A stretch of 6,840 nt of DNA, taken from positions 1 through 6,840 of the forward strand of contig JAIJLI010000111.1 of the NCBI GenBank assembly GCA_022722495.1, given 5' to 3'. This DNA is from Dialister sp. (GTDB lineage Bacteria; Bacillota; Negativicutes; Veillonellales; Dialisteraceae). Positions 183 to 6,840 of this stretch are shown here, piece after piece. The notes beneath the pieces are model-generated. The model searched no databases and was not told where the DNA came from. It saw nothing but the letters and a program-made list of their open reading frames with translations. The first letter of the stretch is position 1. Each line of letters starts with the position of its first letter. A program made the translations under genes and the position numbers.

Positions 183-2147
183 TTATTTTATAAATTTAAA
201 TGTATGTTTTTTATTATATATATCGTATACATTCAAAACATAACTTCCTTTAGGCAAAGAAGAAACTTCCACTTTATTACCAATAGTCAAAGCTTGCTTG
301 CCTATCACTCCTCCAACAGGTAATAGTGGAGTAATATTCATGTTTGCAATCAAGTTATTACCAGAGTTTCTTCTGTTCGATGCGATAACACTTATCTCTT
401 TGCTGTTATATCTAAATTCCACATTAATTGGAGAAGGATCCAAAGGAGCTAATGTATAAGGATAACTCGTGGTTGAACCATTCTTGTTATATGCAGTAAT
501 AGTAAAAGTTGTAGAAAAATCCTTATCTACTGTTGCTATAAAATAACCTTTTTTAAAATCCTTCACCTCATACAAATAGGGCATTTCATTATCTTCATCT
601 AATTGAGAGACAACAACTTTCGTTACACCTTCAAGATTATTTAACCCCACTTTAACTTCTCGTAAATATTCGTCTTCATCCTTTTGCTTTATTGTCGCAG
701 ACCTTGCTAACTCAACTCTTTGTGGTAGATAATCTAAAAGAAAATAATATGCAGTACCCTCTACTTTATGCGCTCCATTAGCATATCGTACGACCCTACA
801 TCTAAGATAACCATCACAGGAGCGTGCATAACTATCAATGTCATAATGAGGTTGAAACTCACTCACATTAATTTCATCAAAACTTTCTAGACCAGGCTCA
901 TAGTATACGTTATCCCAAGTACCATCATTTTTTAAAAAAAAGACTTCAAATCCAATAAAAGGCCTATTACTTTTGGGAATAAATTGGTCTACATAATTCC
1001 ACAAACTATCTTCATCCAAAAGCCCATCAGTTTTAGAATATGAATTTATTGACATTGCCTTTGCTGTATGATTAAGAGAGAATGCCCCCTTAAATGGTAA
1101 TATATTATTTGTACTTGAAACTTTCTCACCACAAGAATTTCCTTCGTTACCAATACCTACAGCAACTAGTCCTGTCCAATTTAAAAGACAACTAAACATT
1201 CTGTATGTATCATCACTAGCAATATCTCTCACAACTGTTCCTTTCCCAAATTCATATGAAAGCAATTCTGATATTTTTTTCGAAGATGTCGGAATAAAAT
1301 AATTCAAAGAACGTTCCTCATCCCAAACAGAAGGCGCATACAAAGAAACATTATAATCTCTATAATAGCCATCTTCTGCATGAACCAATATAGGGTTACC
1401 CATCGTTACTTCTTTATAAGCATTTGTAGGATTCTCGTCCAAAGACATCAAAATATGCGTTTCAAATGGAGTTGGACTAGCAGGGATATTCAGTTTTTCA
1501 GGTACTCGAATTTTCTTGCCACTCCAAACTAAACCAAAAGATTTTGCTATATCTCTTAATGCCATAGTTACAAAATCATAATGTTCTTGGTCTACAGTTC
1601 CATCCAAAGAACAAGAACAAAGATTCTCCAAATTATGATTATAATTGTAGTAGGTTATTGTTATTTCTGGCTCCATAAACATATTGGGCGTAACTCTCTC
1701 ATTAAATAACCCAGCTAATTTATAAGCCAACCCAAGCCATAATACAGCTTTCATTTGTGTCCAAGGAGAACGAGGAGTTAGAACATGATAGCCAAGAGCC
1801 TCTCCTGAACAGTTCTTTACTTTAAATCTCACATTTGAAAAGATTGACTGATTGGCATACTTAGATGTATTCTCATCCCAAACGGCTTTGATTCGTATCG
1901 GAAAAGTAGTAGGCAAAGCTTCCTCCCAAATTTCACAAGCTAACTTAAAAGCACCTTTCATTTCATAAGGCCAATTTCCCTCAAACTCAGGAATAATTTT
2001 GGTACCACCATATACTGAACGCACAATAGGCAATCCTATATTTTTGTCTATTACACTTTCGGAAGAATAAGACAAATCTTCTATTTCCTCTTGCGCCATC
2101 ATTGGCGATAAGGAAAATAGCATAGCTAACATCAATATCTTTCTCAT
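183..2147 (-). CDS. Exported zincin-like pseudoprotease with Ig-like and C-terminal sorting-type domains
   Basis: A 654-residue exported protein. Residues 1-18 are a signal peptide (MRKILMLAMLFSLSPMMA, then QEE). Residues 62-90 (A67, A70, W74, P83-I84) match the helix and strand that open the catalytic domain of secreted bacterial zincins. Residues 189-208 (YDF then LRDIAKSFGL) match their active-site helix, but HExxH has become R198-D199-I-A-K202, so both zinc-binding histidines and the catalytic glutamate are gone. YAPSVWDEERSLN (270-282) follows, with N282 next to where the family usually has a histidine. Residues 395-480 and 495-570 look like two beta-sandwich repeats, the second with an AYNKNG segment. 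The end (V627-EVSSLPKGSYVLNVYD, finishing KFIK) resembles a type A C-terminal domain of type IX secretion. Its start overlaps the stop of the gene before it (ATGA, 2147-2144), so it is the last gene of the operon. Protease activity is unlikely; the true role is unknown. Confidence 0.75.
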   Translation of the reverse strand: MRKILMLAMLFSLSPMMAQEEIEDLSYSSESVIDKNIGLPIVRSVYGGTKIIPEFEGNWPYEMKGAFKLACEIWEEALPTTFPIRIKAVWDENTSKYANQSIFSNVRFKVKNCSGEALGYHVLTPRSPWTQMKAVLWLGLAYKLAGLFNERVTPNMFMEPEITITYYNYNHNLENLCSCSLDGTVDQEHYDFVTMALRDIAKSFGLVWSGKKIRVPEKLNIPASPTPFETHILMSLDENPTNAYKEVTMGNPILVHAEDGYYRDYNVSLYAPSVWDEERSLNYFIPTSSKKISELLSYEFGKGTVVRDIASDDTYRMFSCLLNWTGLVAVGIGNEGNSCGEKVSSTNNILPFKGAFSLNHTAKAMSINSYSKTDGLLDEDSLWNYVDQFIPKSNRPFIGFEVFFLKNDGTWDNVYYEPGLESFDEINVSEFQPHYDIDSYARSCDGYLRCRVVRYANGAHKVEGTAYYFLLDYLPQRVELARSATIKQKDEDEYLREVKVGLNNLEGVTKVVVSQLDEDNEMPYLYEVKDFKKGYFIATVDKDFSTTFTITAYNKNGSTTSYPYTLAPLDPSPINVEFRYNSKEISVIASNRRNSGNNLIANMNITPLLPVGGVIGKQALTIGNKVEVSSLPKGSYVLNVYDIYNKKHTFKFIK

Positions 2148-3172
2148 AATTTAATTTTTTTTATTATTTTCTTATTGTCTGAATATAAAACTTGTATAAT
2201 ATAAAAACCATTCAAAGAAGCAGGAAATATTGTTGAAGGTTGATAATCTGTTGAACAATAACAACGTTTACCACTCAAATCAAACAACTGAACCTGTTTC
2301 CAAGCTGATGTGCTTTGCAGAATATGCCCAGATAAATTAAGCTGTTTAACAGCTTGCCTTGGTCCGTTGATTCCTGTGTAATAAGCATTTTCTAAGATTT
2401 TAACAATGTCTACAGGCATATAATTTTTAGCAAAAATTGTATCACTTTTTTGTGAGTAACCATACTTATTATAGGCCATATAGCAAATTCCTACATCCCA
2501 ATTTGTACCTATATCTTCCGTGAAATGATACACATCTTTTCCTATAGAGTCCACTTTGCAAGGTTTGATAGCCCATCCTGAAACTTCCTCAAAATTATCA
2601 CCTCCTACCCACAGCAAACCCGTTTGAACCATAAAAATAGTATTACAATTTTCACAACGAATTATACCATCATAATAACTCTCATAAATGTCCTTATTTT
2701 CATAATCAAAGTATGGGTAATTATAAGTGACATCTGTAAGCAATGGTCTAGGAGGCAAAGCATTAACATATACTCCCAACGTATCTGTTTGACCATTTTC
2801 TTCACTGACTATATATCCTTTAAAATAACGCGCAAGCCCAATGTCATATGTTCTTGCCATCTTAAACCAATCCTTGTCAAAAATACTTGTTGATAGTACA
2901 AATTGTTTCTCTAATTTCTGAGAAGAGGCACAAATTTTCTTTTCTACTCTGCGACCTTTAGCATCCCATATTATTTCTTCTATTAAAACACTCCATCGAG
3001 CAAACTCTTTGCTTTTCAACTGACAACAATAAAAAGTGTCAGCTTTAATAATAGGTATATCAGCTATTATTGGCACAGAACTTTCTTTCTGCGTAGCTAT
3101 AACTATATTCTGTGAATTAATATCCGCAAAACTAAATAGAGCTACTATTACTAATAATAAAATTTTGTTCAT
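2144..3172 (-). CDS. Exported protein with Ig-like repeats and type IX-like C-terminal domain
   Basis: A 342-residue protein I do not recognise by name. Residues 1-21 are a signal peptide ending INSQ. No protease-like region is present. Residues 58-150 (W60, then GYIVSEENGQTDTLGVYVN and LPPRP) and 165-250 (WDVGICYMAYNKYGYSQ) look like two beta-sandwich domains; both have counterparts in the C-terminal halves of the two flanking large proteins. Residues 275-342 (VQLFDLSGKRCYC, SLNGFYIIQVLY, KKIIKKIKL) are a good match to a type A C-terminal sorting domain. It has nine cysteines (49, 50, 81, 173, 176, 205, 230, 304, 306), including a CENC pair, which is many for an exported protein of this size and suggests disulfides or metal binding. 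It shares ATGA overlaps with both neighbours, so the three are probably translated as a coupled set. A non-enzymatic partner or binding role is inference. Confidence 0.75.
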   Translation of the reverse strand: MNKILLLVIVALFSFADINSQNIVIATQKESSVPIIADIPIIKADTFYCCQLKSKEFARWSVLIEEIIWDAKGRRVEKKICASSQKLEKQFVLSTSIFDKDWFKMARTYDIGLARYFKGYIVSEENGQTDTLGVYVNALPPRPLLTDVTYNYPYFDYENKDIYESYYDGIIRCENCNTIFMVQTGLLWVGGDNFEEVSGWAIKPCKVDSIGKDVYHFTEDIGTNWDVGICYMAYNKYGYSQKSDTIFAKNYMPVDIVKILENAYYTGINGPRQAVKQLNLSGHILQSTSAWKQVQLFDLSGKRCYCSTDYQPSTIFPASLNGFYIIQVLYSDNKKIIKKIKL

Positions 3173-4779
3173 CTTGCTAAGATCTTTCTAATTATAGTTT
3201 TACCCTTGTCACAAACTTTTAATATTATGACCTTTTGATTACCTATATTTATTGTCGAAACTTCATTCTTGACCTGTTTTAACTTACTATTATCCTCTTC
3301 AAGATTTAGTTCATTCTCAAACAAATCATCTATAGAATAATTCTCCTCTCCATATCGGTTTTTTACTTTTATATATAAAGCCGCATTCCCATAAGAATCT
3401 ACATTCTTAAGATGCAATCTTGTATAATATGGAGTATCAGAAAAATAGGCACATTCAATAGGGCTATATTCCTCTTCCACATAAGCATCTAGATAATGAC
3501 TTCCCTCATAATAGACATCAACATCAATATCAAAAAGATATGGGTCATCTGTTGGTATAATATTTACTTTATTAACTTTCAATATTGACGGTTTCAATTC
3601 TAAAGTCAAATTGTAAGAGTCATAAACACTATCATTTCCGACAATCCCCTTGAACGTGATGGTTGCATTTATATCTCCTTCTATCGTATGGACATACTTA
3701 TCATCTGTTATCGATGGCAACACAAAAGTTAGATTAGAAGATGTTAATCTTTCAACACCTCCATCCTTTAAAGGTAGACAGCATTCCCACATAGGTTTCT
3801 CAATGCCTTCGCTTGGGGTTACATGAAATATATGCTTCTTATATGCTGATGTAATTCCTGAGTCATCTATATCTTCCCCTATTATTTTAACTGTTTTTGT
3901 TCTTGATTTCCAACCAATTTCTCTTAAGATATTCGTTGTTAAACTATCTATTACCAATTCTACAGTTGGTTGTTCTTTAGAAGACATCAAAGTTCCATCT
4001 GCCAACACTCTATTGAGCGATTTGCTTTCTTCAAAAGTACTAGGAGCATATATTTTCCTAGATTCTTCCTTTCGCCCAAAATACACATACCCATTAGCCT
4101 GTTTTACAAAATTTCTCAACTTAGTTCTCTCTGTTTCAAAAATATCTTTTAAATAAATATCATCTTCAGAAAACAGACAAGACTCAAATTTTGTCTTTTC
4201 ATTTTTGATATAAAAGCCAAAGGTATCTCTTTTAGCATTATATTTTATAAATGAACCAAAACCTAAAACTCTAGCTATTTCCCTCAGCAAAGAGTAAGAT
4301 AAGTTTTTAACTGGAGTTGTGGATTTCGACAAACCTACATTCCAGACGGTTTTATTATTTATCTTTATTTTGGCATCTAACGAAGAATCGTTAGTACGAG
4401 TAAGTGCCTTAAAAAGAGCTGTCGGATAATAGAAACCATCTTCCATCAAATGATGTTGCGCCTCTGTATGTATATCTGAATTTCCTAAATCAGAATAAAG
4501 AAACTGTATATTAACAGTAACTCCGCTTGGAAGAAAGCTATTCCATACGTCTTTAGCCATATCAATAGCAACCATTAAGGAATCTGGCATATCATCAGGA
4601 TAGACTACATTTATGTAACCACCCCTCTGAGTAGACAAACGGCTTTTTTTCGCCCCATCAGAAGGTTTTATATATGACGTGGTTAAATCACAAACACATT
4701 CATGCTCCAAAGTTACGTATTCTTGAGCGTAACTATTCAATGCGATAATTGCCATCAACAATATAATCAGTCGTTTCAT
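3169..4779 (-). CDS. Exported zincin-like pseudoprotease with Ig-like C-terminal domains
   Basis: A 536-residue exported protein with a signal peptide at 1-18 (cleavage near SYA-QE). Residues 66-92 (MVAIDMAKDVWNSFLP, then VTVNIQ) match the start of secreted bacterial zincin domains. LLREIARVLGFGS (164-176) clearly matches the LLHEIAHxLGFGS active-site helix, with both histidines replaced (R166, R170) and E167 kept. IYAPSTFEESKSLN (243-256), TLM (263-265) and NILREIGW (283-290) follow in the family's usual order, but N256-R257 stand where a serine-histidine pair is usual. Residues 315-400 and 405-485 are two beta-rich, Ig-like segments, the second ending IKVKNRYGEE. The last 30 residues (INIGNQKVIILKVCDKG, ending RKILAR) look like only the final strands of a sorting-type domain. 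It lies 19 bases after the DUF3244-like gene and overlaps the next start by ATGA. Zinc-dependent cleavage is unlikely. I am confident of the fold resemblance, not of a function. Confidence 0.78.
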   Translation of the reverse strand: MKRLIILLMAIIALNSYAQEYVTLEHECVCDLTTSYIKPSDGAKKSRLSTQRGGYINVVYPDDMPDSLMVAIDMAKDVWNSFLPSGVTVNIQFLYSDLGNSDIHTEAQHHLMEDGFYYPTALFKALTRTNDSSLDAKIKINNKTVWNVGLSKSTTPVKNLSYSLLREIARVLGFGSFIKYNAKRDTFGFYIKNEKTKFESCLFSEDDIYLKDIFETERTKLRNFVKQANGYVYFGRKEESRKIYAPSTFEESKSLNRVLADGTLMSSKEQPTVELVIDSLTTNILREIGWKSRTKTVKIIGEDIDDSGITSAYKKHIFHVTPSEGIEKPMWECCLPLKDGGVERLTSSNLTFVLPSITDDKYVHTIEGDINATITFKGIVGNDSVYDSYNLTLELKPSILKVNKVNIIPTDDPYLFDIDVDVYYEGSHYLDAYVEEEYSPIECAYFSDTPYYTRLHLKNVDSYGNAALYIKVKNRYGEENYSIDDLFENELNLEEDNSKLKQVKNEVSTINIGNQKVIILKVCDKGKTIIRKILAR

Positions 4780-4798: not shown

Positions 4799-5155
4799 TT
4801 ATGGTAACTCTATTCCTCCTTGATACATACCATTTCCATCAGAAATGGTAATAGTAAATTTCCCATTCAACTCTTGTGGAATTTGAAAAGTCTTATCTAT
4901 AATAATATAGGTATATACTTCTCCTTCCTCACTTTCAAGTGTGAGCGTGTAACCAATCACTTGACTCGGCAAGGTCAATAGGTGGTCCACCAAATCAACA
5001 TTCAAAGGTCGTTTAGGTGCTCGGCTACCTTTGAGAGTTCCGTGAGTTGGTCTATCCAAGCTATACAATAATGTATAAGACTCGGCTCTAGAATGGATAG
5101 GACACAAAAGTAATGCCCCCCAAAAAACAATTAGGTTTGTTAATAATTTCTTCAT
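4799..5155 (-). CDS. Small exported DUF3244-like protein
   Basis: A 118-residue protein with a signal peptide at about 1-24 (KK, then a hydrophobic stretch with FWGALLL, cleavage after HSRA). C18 has leucine before it, so it is not a good lipobox. The mature part is about 94 residues and beta-rich. It shows the layout I associate with DUF3244 proteins of Bacteroides: a G-x-R-x-P-x-R-P segment (43-50), a hydrophobic strand (57-71), a charged turn SEEGEVYTY (75-83), then LNGKFTITISDGNGMYQGGIEL (97-117) as the closing hairpin. Such proteins often lie directly downstream of TPR/HTH regulators and upstream of exported proteins, as here. The family has no known biochemical role. It is the first gene of the operon and has its own promoter candidate at 5198-5229. 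No clear Shine-Dalgarno sequence precedes the ATG, which is normal for this phylum. Confidence 0.7.
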   Translation of the reverse strand: MKKLLTNLIVFWGALLLCPIHSRAESYTLLYSLDRPTHGTLKGSRAPKRPLNVDLVDHLLTLPSQVIGYTLTLESEEGEVYTYIIIDKTFQIPQELNGKFTITISDGNGMYQGGIELP

Positions 5156-5331
5156 AATCTCATTATTTTTAGCTTTTGCTTGTTTTTTATTCTACTACAA
5201 AAGTATAAAAATGCAGCAAACTACGCAAGAAAATTATCAATTTAAATTTTACCTATTTTTTACCACTCATACAAGACTCTCTAAATGAAGTGTTTACAGA
5301 GTATTTTACAAAAATTTTACTATGCTAGAAA
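5156..5331. other. Intergenic region between regulator gene and operon
   Basis: This 176-base AT-rich gap follows the TAA of the regulator gene. Apart from the promoter candidate in its downstream third, I see no RNA gene, no GC-rich terminator hairpin and no clear operator palindrome. A short inverted repeat (ACTCT and AGAGT, 5275-5301 approximately) has only five pairs and a long loop. Without a visible terminator, some read-through from the regulator gene into the operon is possible. Confidence 0.6.
5198..5229 (-). promoter_or_regulatory. Bacteroidetes-type promoter candidate for the operon
   Basis: On the minus strand, TACTTTTG (5205-5198) fully matches the TAnnTTTG -7 element of Bacteroides housekeeping promoters. 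CTTG (5229-5226) lies 20 bases upstream and matches the TTTG -33 element at three of four bases. Transcription would start near 5190, giving a leader of about 35 bases before the ATG at 5155. It is the only full match I found in the gap between the regulator gene and the operon. Confidence 0.55.
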
Positions 5332-6840
5332 TTATTGGATATGTAGAACATACTCATCAAAATCCTTAGGTTTTCCTATCTTTCCACATAGTTTTTTCAA
5401 CATTGTTTTCCTACTTTTTGAGATTGTTGCATCAGATAGATTTAACAAGATTGCCATTAAGGATATAGAGAAACCTAATCTAATCAGTAAGCAGATTCGA
5501 TAATCTCTATCGCTGACTCGGTTCTTCAACATAGGAATAAAGTCAGGAATTACTTTCTCTACCGTATCAGCCAATTCCGTCCAATCCTCCTCATGCATTT
5601 CTTCCAAAGGATGCGCTTCTATACATTGGATTTTTTTGTAAATGGAAGAATTCTTTAAAACTAAATCAGCATCTGAAATCGAAGATAATGAGTATTTGTT
5701 TTGTATATCATGTATCTCAGACTCTAATTTACTGATTGCATTTTCTTTCTCTGTTATAATTTGAGTTAGCTTTTTGTCTTTTTCTGCTACAAGTTGAGTT
5801 TTTTCTTCCTGTAACCTTTTAAGTTTAAGCAAGCAGTCCTCATACACTAGCTTTGAAGCTGCTATTCTCTTTTTCTTAAGAGCTAACTGCTTTCTATAAA
5901 TATAAGAAAGGAACAAGAACAATACGACACAAGCAGAAACTATCATATAGTTCATTTGTGTACTTCGCTTTGCTTTCTGCTCAGCTATTCTTGCTATTTC
6001 TTGATTTCTACCATAATCATACATAGCTTGCACTTGCTGTAATTGCGTTTTTCTTGTTTCTATCAAGTCTGAATCATTATACTCAGAACTTTGCATAGCA
6101 TATTTCATTGCCAATGCTGGTTGATTAATCTTTGCATAATATCGAGCTAAAGCTTTAGTTGCAGCTGCTTTTATACTATATGACTTGCATAGTCTTAGGC
6201 TCTGCTGTAGATAATTATAGGCAGAATCCAACTGAGCTGTTAATATATAATAGGTCCCTTTTTGGCACAAAACATAAGCTTTAGAATCCTCATATTCCGA
6301 GTTTCCCTCATATCCTGTAGAGAAGTATGCCTTAAAAACTTTTTGGGCATTAAGTGTATCTTGTTTTTCAATATAATAATTGTAATTACAGCCCAAAGCT
6401 ATTGCTGCTGCATAATTGTTTCCTATTTGCTTGAACATATGTGCGGCATGCAAGTTTATTGTTATAACAGAATCTTTATTCCCTAAATAGGAATAAGCAT
6501 CTATTCTATTTTGATAATTAATTATTGCATTTAAAGTGTCCTTTGCCAAATAGGCATACTTCTCTGCCTTACCAAACGCATCCAGCAATTGATAAGGTAA
6601 ATATTGCTTACTAAAGAGAAATCCCATCTGGCTATATACCCTGTAAAGCGTGCCATAGTCGCAATCTGCGGCTGTTGTATCGGCTTGCTCCGTAGCTTTA
6701 TCATAAAATTCCAATGCCATCGGTGCCTCATGCATGTCTCTATACACGCAGCCCAACACATAGTTGGCTAGCATCCGCTCATTAGCCGAACCATGATGGT
6801 CATAATAATCCACGACCTCCTTCATCACGCTATCAGATGT
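5332..6840 (-). CDS. Membrane-anchored TPR / coiled-coil / helix-turn-helix regulator (5' end missing)
   Basis: The frame is open to the window edge (codons for TSDS precede the GTG-ATG at 6828-6823), so the N-terminus, probably with a signal sequence, lies outside. Numbering from that GTG, 498 residues are visible. Residues 20-252 are TPR-like helix pairs (for example LGCVYRDMHEAPMALEFYD at 25-43 and DSAYNYLQQSLRLC at 201-214). Residues 293-311 are one transmembrane helix (MNYMIVSACVVLFLFLSYI) followed by basic residues. Residues 325-380 are a charged coiled coil. Residues 435-498 (RVSDRDYRICLLIRLGFS, then LSDATISKSRKTMLKKL) form a LuxR-like helix-turn-helix typical of Bacteroidetes TPR regulators. 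The layout suggests periplasmic TPRs sensing a signal and a cytoplasmic DNA-binding end. It is probably the regulator of the four-gene operon downstream, from position alone. The domain call is firm; ligand and target are not known. Confidence 0.85.
   Translation of the reverse strand, partial: TSDSVMKEVVDYYDHHGSANERMLANYVLGCVYRDMHEAPMALEFYDKATEQADTTAADCDYGTLYRVYSQMGFLFSKQYLPYQLLDAFGKAEKYAYLAKDTLNAIINYQNRIDAYSYLGNKDSVITINLHAAHMFKQIGNNYAAAIALGCNYNYYIEKQDTLNAQKVFKAYFSTGYEGNSEYEDSKAYVLCQKGTYYILTAQLDSAYNYLQQSLRLCKSYSIKAAATKALARYYAKINQPALAMKYAMQSSEYNDSDLIETRKTQLQQVQAMYDYGRNQEIARIAEQKAKRSTQMNYMIVSACVVLFLFLSYIYRKQLALKKKRIAASKLVYEDCLLKLKRLQEEKTQLVAEKDKKLTQIITEKENAISKLESEIHDIQNKYSLSSISDADLVLKNSSIYKKIQCIEAHPLEEMHEEDWTELADTVEKVIPDFIPMLKNRVSDRDYRICLLIRLGFSISLMAILLNLSDATISKSRKTMLKKLCGKIGKPKDFDEYVLHIQ

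What the first reader, a model, noticed from the sequence alone, without database searches (positions are those of the whole stretch)
183..4779. Two exported zincin-like proteins in one operon, both without zinc ligands
Both large proteins keep the landmarks of a secreted bacterial zincin family in the right order: A-x2/3-A-x3-W near the start, the LLxEIAxxLGF helix, YAPSxxxExxSLN and, in one, TLM and ILREIGW. Yet HExxH reads REIAR in one (residues 166-170) and RDIAK in the other (198-202), and the usual SxSH is SLN in both. The reading frames are intact, with signal peptides and coupled starts, so this looks like selection for a non-catalytic role rather than decay. Since both copies lost the ligands differently while the rest is kept, the operon may define a pseudoprotease system for binding rather than cutting.
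Basis: partly seen in the sequence, partly recalled or inferred. Interest (0 to 1): 0.72.

Follow-up and report, generated by a model that had tools for sequence, protein, structure and literature searches.

The report
Paired dead metalloproteases, one gene cassette
Two neighbouring genes that closely match those of the gut bacterium Segatella copri encode relatives of zinc-dependent protein-cutting enzymes in which the zinc-holding residues are replaced, as they are in the related proteins examined, and the pair is predicted to be exported to the cell surface and likely holds other proteins instead of cutting them.

Summary
The 536-aa protein A and 654-aa protein B are relatives of secreted Bacteroidota metalloproteases (NF038122-like). 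HExxH becomes REIAR (A) and RDIAK (B); the third His becomes Arg257 and Tyr283. None of 133 homologues found with A or B carries HExxH (3 are fragments without the helix). In B the replacements are themselves nearly fixed (Arg 104 of 105, Asp 100 of 105), which points to selection; family A is looser. A and B are also full-length homologues of each other. In 29 genome loci found through B, A is present in 23 and upstream of B in 21, usually with a third secreted gene C between; some relatives fuse A to C. A small DUF3244-like protein (D) and a TPR-membrane regulator (E) often lie upstream. In 12 carrier genomes a profile of catalytic relatives met no catalytic member, so an active cousin of the same family is unlikely as partner. 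The most likely role, untested, is a surface binding or scaffold complex. Limits: zincin fold not shown structurally, one or two losses unresolved, B broken or short in 12 of 29 loci. NCBIfam already names an inactivated T9SS metalloprotease (M6-like), so this is a new variant of a known kind.

The parts
3169..4779 (-). Gene A, 536 aa: hydrophobic N-terminal export signal, pseudo-zincin domain (about residues 20-295), two Ig/FN3-like domains (295-490), short C-terminal beta tail without a T9SS profile match
4270..4284 (-). A residues 166-170 REIAR, at the HExxH columns
4009..4020 (-). A residues 254-257 SLNR; Arg257 at the third-His column
2144..3172 (-). Gene C, 342 aa, export signal, weak T9SS type A sorting tail (21.2 bits, cut-off 23); its C-terminal part is fused to A in some relatives
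183..2147 (-). Gene B, 654 aa: export signal, pseudo-zincin domain (about 20-330), Ig/FN3-like domains (336-571), weak T9SS-like tail (16.1 bits, cut-off 23)
1542..1556 (-). B residues 198-202 RDIAK, at the HExxH columns
1299..1310 (-). B residues 280-283 SLNY; Tyr283 at the third-His column
4799..5155 (-). Gene D, 118 aa, export signal, DUF3244-like
   Evidence: no Pfam match of its own at E<=1
5198..5205 (-). TANNTTTG match 42 bases upstream of the D start; could be a Bacteroidetes-type -7 element (consensus recalled; one of 11 such matches on this strand, so weak)
5332..6840 (-). Gene E, at least 502 aa (open at the window edge): weak TPR matches, a hydrophobic segment at 296-314 taken as the membrane segment (the stretch at 449 scores as high), C-terminal part that looks like an HTH domain (by eye, no profile hit)
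   Evidence: relatives match NF053779 BT3442_fam far below cut-off

Best explanation
A and B are two paralogous pseudo-metalloproteases, homologous to HExxH enzymes but without the residues of all three zinc ligands, encoded with C as a cassette that is predicted to be exported by the type IX system and likely works as a surface binding or scaffold complex that grips proteins or peptides without cutting them. Shown: homology to catalytic relatives, replacement of the ligands in the homologues of both, full-length homology of A and B, recurrence of the A-C-B cassette, A+C fusions, and no catalytic member met with the family profile in 12 carrier genomes. Inferred: basic and Tyr side chains (Arg, Lys/Arg, Tyr in B) fill the former metal site and keep the cleft as a binding or structural surface; A, C and B act together; E controls expression and D is a small secreted partner. 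The ligand is unknown; host, dietary or neighbour-cell polypeptides are the natural candidates for a gut commensal.
For: HExxH in 0 of 133 homologues. B, 108 rows with the window, 105 with a letter in the helix: His1 is Arg 104 (the one Lys is P0133, doubtfully aligned); Glu is Asp 100; His2 is Lys/Arg 89; His3 is Tyr 82 of 108. A, 27 rows: His1 Arg/Lys 24; His3 Tyr 15; Met-turn Met 27. HExxHxxG in 51 of 51 loci taken from the NF038122 searches (two genes counted twice). Profile matches A-B 99.5, B-catalytic 99.5, A-catalytic 99.2%. No conserved His/Cys cluster for a new metal site. A in 23 of 29 loci, upstream of B in 21; 4-base overlap after A in 13 of 17 hand-listed loci. C-profile match in the tail of P0017, P0018, P0019, P0022, L020 and L022, none in three unfused A proteins. 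PorU over cut-off in 11 of 12 carriers. Catalytic-family profile in 12 carriers: 10 of 17 matches cover the protease domain and all ten lie in the cassette. dN/dS 0.14 for A in the one pair with dS under 1.
Against: B is split, truncated or short in 12 of 29 loci (L021 and L024 reach a contig end) and A in 3 of 23, so parts are dispensable in some lineages or assemblies are faulty. Family A is mixed at the Glu and His2 columns. T9SS tails of window B and C are below cut-off and A has none. Structure matches cover only the Ig/FN3 part, so the zincin fold is not shown structurally. The catalytic profile missed the known B genes of three carriers (G004, G006, G888), so its sensitivity is limited, and carriers do hold other HExxH proteins (L034, L036). 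One pattern of the locus scan contained the Arg-Asp motif, so the 29 loci cannot test its conservation. No ligand, complex or expression evidence.
Confidence: 0.55

Rival explanations
1. The pseudo-zincin domains are inert spacers: the working parts are the Ig/FN3-like domains and C, and the old protease domain is only kept folded (adhesin-like or stalk role).
For: Ig/FN3-like domains fill much of each protein and dominate the fold search; family A is variable at the Glu and His2 columns.
Against: Arg198 and Asp199 of B are nearly invariant (104 and 100 of 105) against 34% mean column identity, as are Ser280 (108 of 108) and Leu281 (invariant in the 87 rows of A1).
Confidence: 0.2
2. Decoy: A and B bind inhibitors aimed at secreted proteases, from host or competitors, and so shield other proteases.
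For: Retained protease-like landmarks and predicted export; in other Bacteroidaceae an E-D pair has a C10, C25 or C13 peptidase gene close downstream in 3 of 16 regions examined; carriers hold other HExxH proteins (L034, L036).
Against: No catalytic member of this family met in 12 carrier genomes; the ligand residues of the cleft have changed; the other 13 of 16 E-D regions showed no C10, C25 or C13 peptidase among the proteins scanned.
Confidence: 0.1
3. Sensor arm: A-C-B or D captures peptides and reports to the membrane regulator E, which controls the cassette.
For: E lies upstream in the window and an E-type gene on the same strand upstream in 10 of 29 loci; an E-profile match lies beside D in 17 of 20 chosen DUF3244 regions.
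Against: T9SS cargo would be outside the outer membrane, away from E; no signalling evidence.
Confidence: 0.08
4. Decaying protease operon: activity was lost and the genes are on their way out.
For: B broken or short in 12 of 29 loci, A in 3 of 23.
Against: HExxH absent in all 133 homologues, nearly fixed replacement residues in B, low dN/dS where computable, hundreds of members in the nearest clusters.
Confidence: 0.05

Closest known systems
NCBIfam NF038122 metallo_LGF metalloproteases and HExxH relatives in Bacteroidota
   Same: Same domain with helix, YAPSxW, SxSH, LM and GW landmarks in the same order; T9SS tail over cut-off in 2 of 5 scanned
   Different: They keep HExxH and SxSH; A and B have other residues at all three zinc ligands, and B mostly also lacks the Met
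NCBIfam NF052323 T9SS-dependent M6-like inactivated metalloprotease
   Same: A named family of inactivated metalloproteases that use the T9SS; it surfaced as a tail-only match of L065
   Different: Neither A nor B matches it at E up to 1; M6-like by its name. Nothing else about that family was looked up.
Inactive metallopeptidase homologues such as ADAM11/22/23 (review PMC11266112; abstract, outline and passages seen)
   Same: Zinc ligands and general base replaced, Met-turn typically kept, roles in protein binding
   Different: The cases named in the passages seen are mostly eukaryotic; the word-start 'bacteroid' occurs 0 times in that main text
DUF3244 proteins beside TPR-type regulators (PF11589; NF053779 BT3442_fam)
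   Same: D and E resemble these
   Different: Elsewhere the pair lies beside varied genes: C10, C25 or C13 peptidases, radical-SAM, C39 transporter, LanC-like, or unrelated genes

Membership tests
NF038122 metallo_LGF metalloprotease | Profile score over the curated cut-off of 80 bits | tested here: not met
   A 26.6 bits, B no match at E<=1
NF038122 metallo_LGF metalloprotease | HExxH zinc motif | tested here: not met
   REIAR and RDIAK; HExxH in 0 of 133 homologues
NF038122 metallo_LGF metalloprotease | Homologous domain with landmarks in order | tested here: met
   hhalign 99.5 and 99.2% over about 290 columns to eight HExxH relatives
Metzincin | Third zinc ligand | tested here: not met
   Arg257 in A, Tyr283 in B at the SxSH His column
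Metzincin | Met-turn Met | tested here: inconclusive
   Met 27 of 27 in A; Leu 98, Met 10 of 108 in B
Metzincin | Zincin fold | tested here: inconclusive
   Models of mean pLDDT 85.3 and 84.9, but the matches shown fill only the Ig/FN3 part
Pseudopeptidase | Homology to active enzymes with catalytic residues replaced | tested here: met
Pseudopeptidase | No catalytic activity | not testable with these tools
   Needs purified protein
NF052323 T9SS-dependent M6-like inactivated metalloprotease | Profile match | tested here: not met
   No match of A or B at E<=1
T9SS cargo | C-terminal sorting domain over cut-off | tested here: inconclusive
   Window C 21.2 and B 16.1 bits (cut-off 23), A none; relative L001 C 29.7 bits
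T9SS cargo | Host has the T9SS sortase PorU | tested here: inconclusive
   11 of 12 carrier genomes over cut-off, but the window's own genome is not held
DUF3244 (gene D) | Profile match | tested here: inconclusive
   Window D none at E<=1; profile-profile 98.0% over 79 columns to ten D proteins of PF11589-found regions plus L005 D; L005 D over cut-off

The most novel reading that the evidence does not exclude
A two-subunit pseudo-protease receptor: zinc replaced by a fixed Arg-Asp...Lys plus Tyr cluster, so that two dead metalloprotease clefts on the surface of gut Bacteroidales capture polypeptides whole, under the control of a membrane regulator.
Probability: 0.2. Interest if true: 0.75.

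Novelty: new variant of a known kind. Interest (0 to 1): 0.52.

Why it matters
Dead proteases that became binding proteins are, to my knowledge, best known from animals. Here two paralogous proteins, both without zinc ligands, travel together in gut Bacteroidales, with no active member of their own family met in the 12 carrier genomes searched. If they bind polypeptides, they would show how a protease cleft turns into a receptor, and would be a new class of surface proteins in human gut commensals.

Tried and rejected
Own genome: not held. PDB by sequence with B or A: nothing better than E=0.24 and 0.33; with the catalytic alignment, T9SS tails from E=0.028 and Karilysin at 0.63. Viral contigs with A2, plasmids and phages with B: no relative. 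Third protein search with the A alignment: no new member. One or two losses: unresolved; the tree used 40 of 51 catalytic rows (11 left out as duplicates, near-copies or a divergent group), 17 of 27 A rows and 24 of 108 B rows, ligand columns dropped. dS is above 1 or not computable in all listed pairs but one. An active member of the family as partner: none met in 12 carriers, within the profile's limited sensitivity. A new His/Cys metal site: none conserved. Papers: searches listed no paper whose title or abstract start describes this cassette; only open-licence PMC is covered, and only PMC11266112 (abstract, outline, passages) and PMC10434189 (two passages) were opened.
Full report
What is there. 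The minus strand carries E (5332-6840, open at the edge), D (4799-5155), A (3169-4779), C (2144-3172) and B (183-2147). A/C and C/B overlap by 4 bases; D and A are 19 bases apart. A, B, C and D have hydrophobic N-terminal segments. The nearest database match of B is 96% identical, and a source names it a Segatella copri hypothetical protein. The one S. copri genome in the locus set (L019) holds only a diverged cassette (26% identity to B).

Pseudo-protease test. A matches NF038122 metallo_LGF weakly; B does not. The same profile finds B-family genes in other genomes below cut-off. HExxH relatives from Bacteroidota align with both over about 290 columns. At the ligand columns, B has Arg 104 of 105, Asp 100 of 105, Lys/Arg 89 of 105 and Tyr 82 of 108. 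Three B rows (P0029, P0104, P0107) lack the helix, and P0133 is doubtfully aligned; without it the counts are Arg 104 of 104 and Asp 99 of 104. A has Arg/Lys 24 of 27 at His1, mixed residues at Glu and His2, and Tyr 15 of 27 at His3. A keeps the Met-turn Met (27 of 27); B has Leu in 98 and Met in 10 of 108. Single His residues remain in a few rows (B His2 column 2, A His2 column 1), but none keeps HExxH. The homologues were found by similarity to A and B, so catalytic relatives too distant for that search are not in the 133. All 51 loci taken from NF038122 matches carry HExxHxxG; these are the loci the tool returned, and two pairs lie on one gene each. Weaker NF038122 matches in Bacteroidaceae include HExxH proteins of another kind with a HExxHxLGLPD motif (M6-like, a recalled label) and pseudo B genes.

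Cassette. A scan of genome contigs with the B alignment gave 29 loci; one of its three patterns contains the Arg-Asp motif, so these loci do not test that motif. A is present in 23 and upstream of B in 21; L007 and L022 have B first. A C-type or other small gene lies between in most; L014 has none. The C profile (built from 11 loci and the window) matches the tail of L020, L022, P0017, P0018, P0019 and P0022, and not L019 or three unfused A proteins. D-type genes were recognised in 10 of 29 loci, each next to the first A or B gene; E-type genes upstream on the same strand in 10 of 29, on the other strand in 2. Several loci start too close to a contig end to tell. B is a single frame of at least 550 aa in 17 of 29 loci; in the other 12 it is split, truncated or short, and L021 and L024 reach a contig end. 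A is split or short in 3 of 23 (L003, L018, L027).

Selection and partners. Of the 16 closest pairs listed, dN/dS could be computed in 8 (0.12-0.27); dS is under 1 only for A in L010/L012 (0.14). With a catalytic-family profile, 12 of the carrier genomes gave 17 matches: 10 over the protease domain, all inside the cassette by their coordinates, and 7 over the T9SS tail only. The profile did not find the B genes of G004, G006 and G888, so it could miss very distant members. Two carriers hold other HExxH proteins (L034, L036). PorU is over cut-off in 11 of the 12.

D and E. Window D is linked to DUF3244 only by profile-profile comparison (98.0%). From the 58 DUF3244 matches I chose 20 regions. 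A single-sequence search matched E beside D in 9; a nine-row E profile matched it in 17 of 20, in L127 on the other strand. Of 20 downstream proteins scanned from 16 regions, C10, C25 and C13 peptidases appear in one region each (L131, L132, L137), radical-SAM, C39 transporter, LanC-like or VKOR genes in four (L119, L120, L128, L129), and unrelated or no Pfam families in the rest. The link to peptidases is thus a minority pattern without a base rate.

Structure. Models of A and B have mean pLDDT 85.3 and 84.9. The solved structures shown match the Ig/FN3 part. The zincin fold rests on sequence homology alone.

Evolution. A and B join at 90/80 in the full tree, with long branches. Without B, A falls near two catalytic rows (87/75); without A, B is sister to all catalytic rows. 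One or two losses cannot be told apart. Full-length profile homology of A and B (540 columns) favours a common ancestor with the same domain plan.

Verdict. A real, recurrent pair of pseudo-metalloproteases in a cassette. The role in binding is the best guess and is untested. NCBIfam already names an inactivated M6-like T9SS metalloprotease, so the kind is known and this is a new variant.

Noticed in passing
L119, L120, L128, L129: DUF3244 genes lie near radical-SAM/SPASM, C39-ABC transporter, LanC-like or VKOR genes, as in peptide-maturation clusters; the small DUF3244 protein may be more than a protease companion.
   Followed up: partly
L131, L132, L137: An E-profile match and a DUF3244 gene lie upstream of C10, C25 and C13 peptidase genes in unnamed Bacteroidaceae genomes.
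   Followed up: partly
L003, L016, L018, L022, L023, L025, L027, L028, L029: B reading frame split or truncated, in L022, L023, L025 and L028 beside an unbroken A; decay, phase switching or assembly error not told apart.
   Followed up: no
G001:C16:20059-21138: A 369-aa frame that matches only positions 278-660 of the B profile, without its pseudo-active-site helix.
   Followed up: no
L003, L006: Contigs labelled Pseudoflavonifractor and Lachnospiraceae carry this otherwise Bacteroidales cassette; possibly misbinned MAGs.
   Followed up: no
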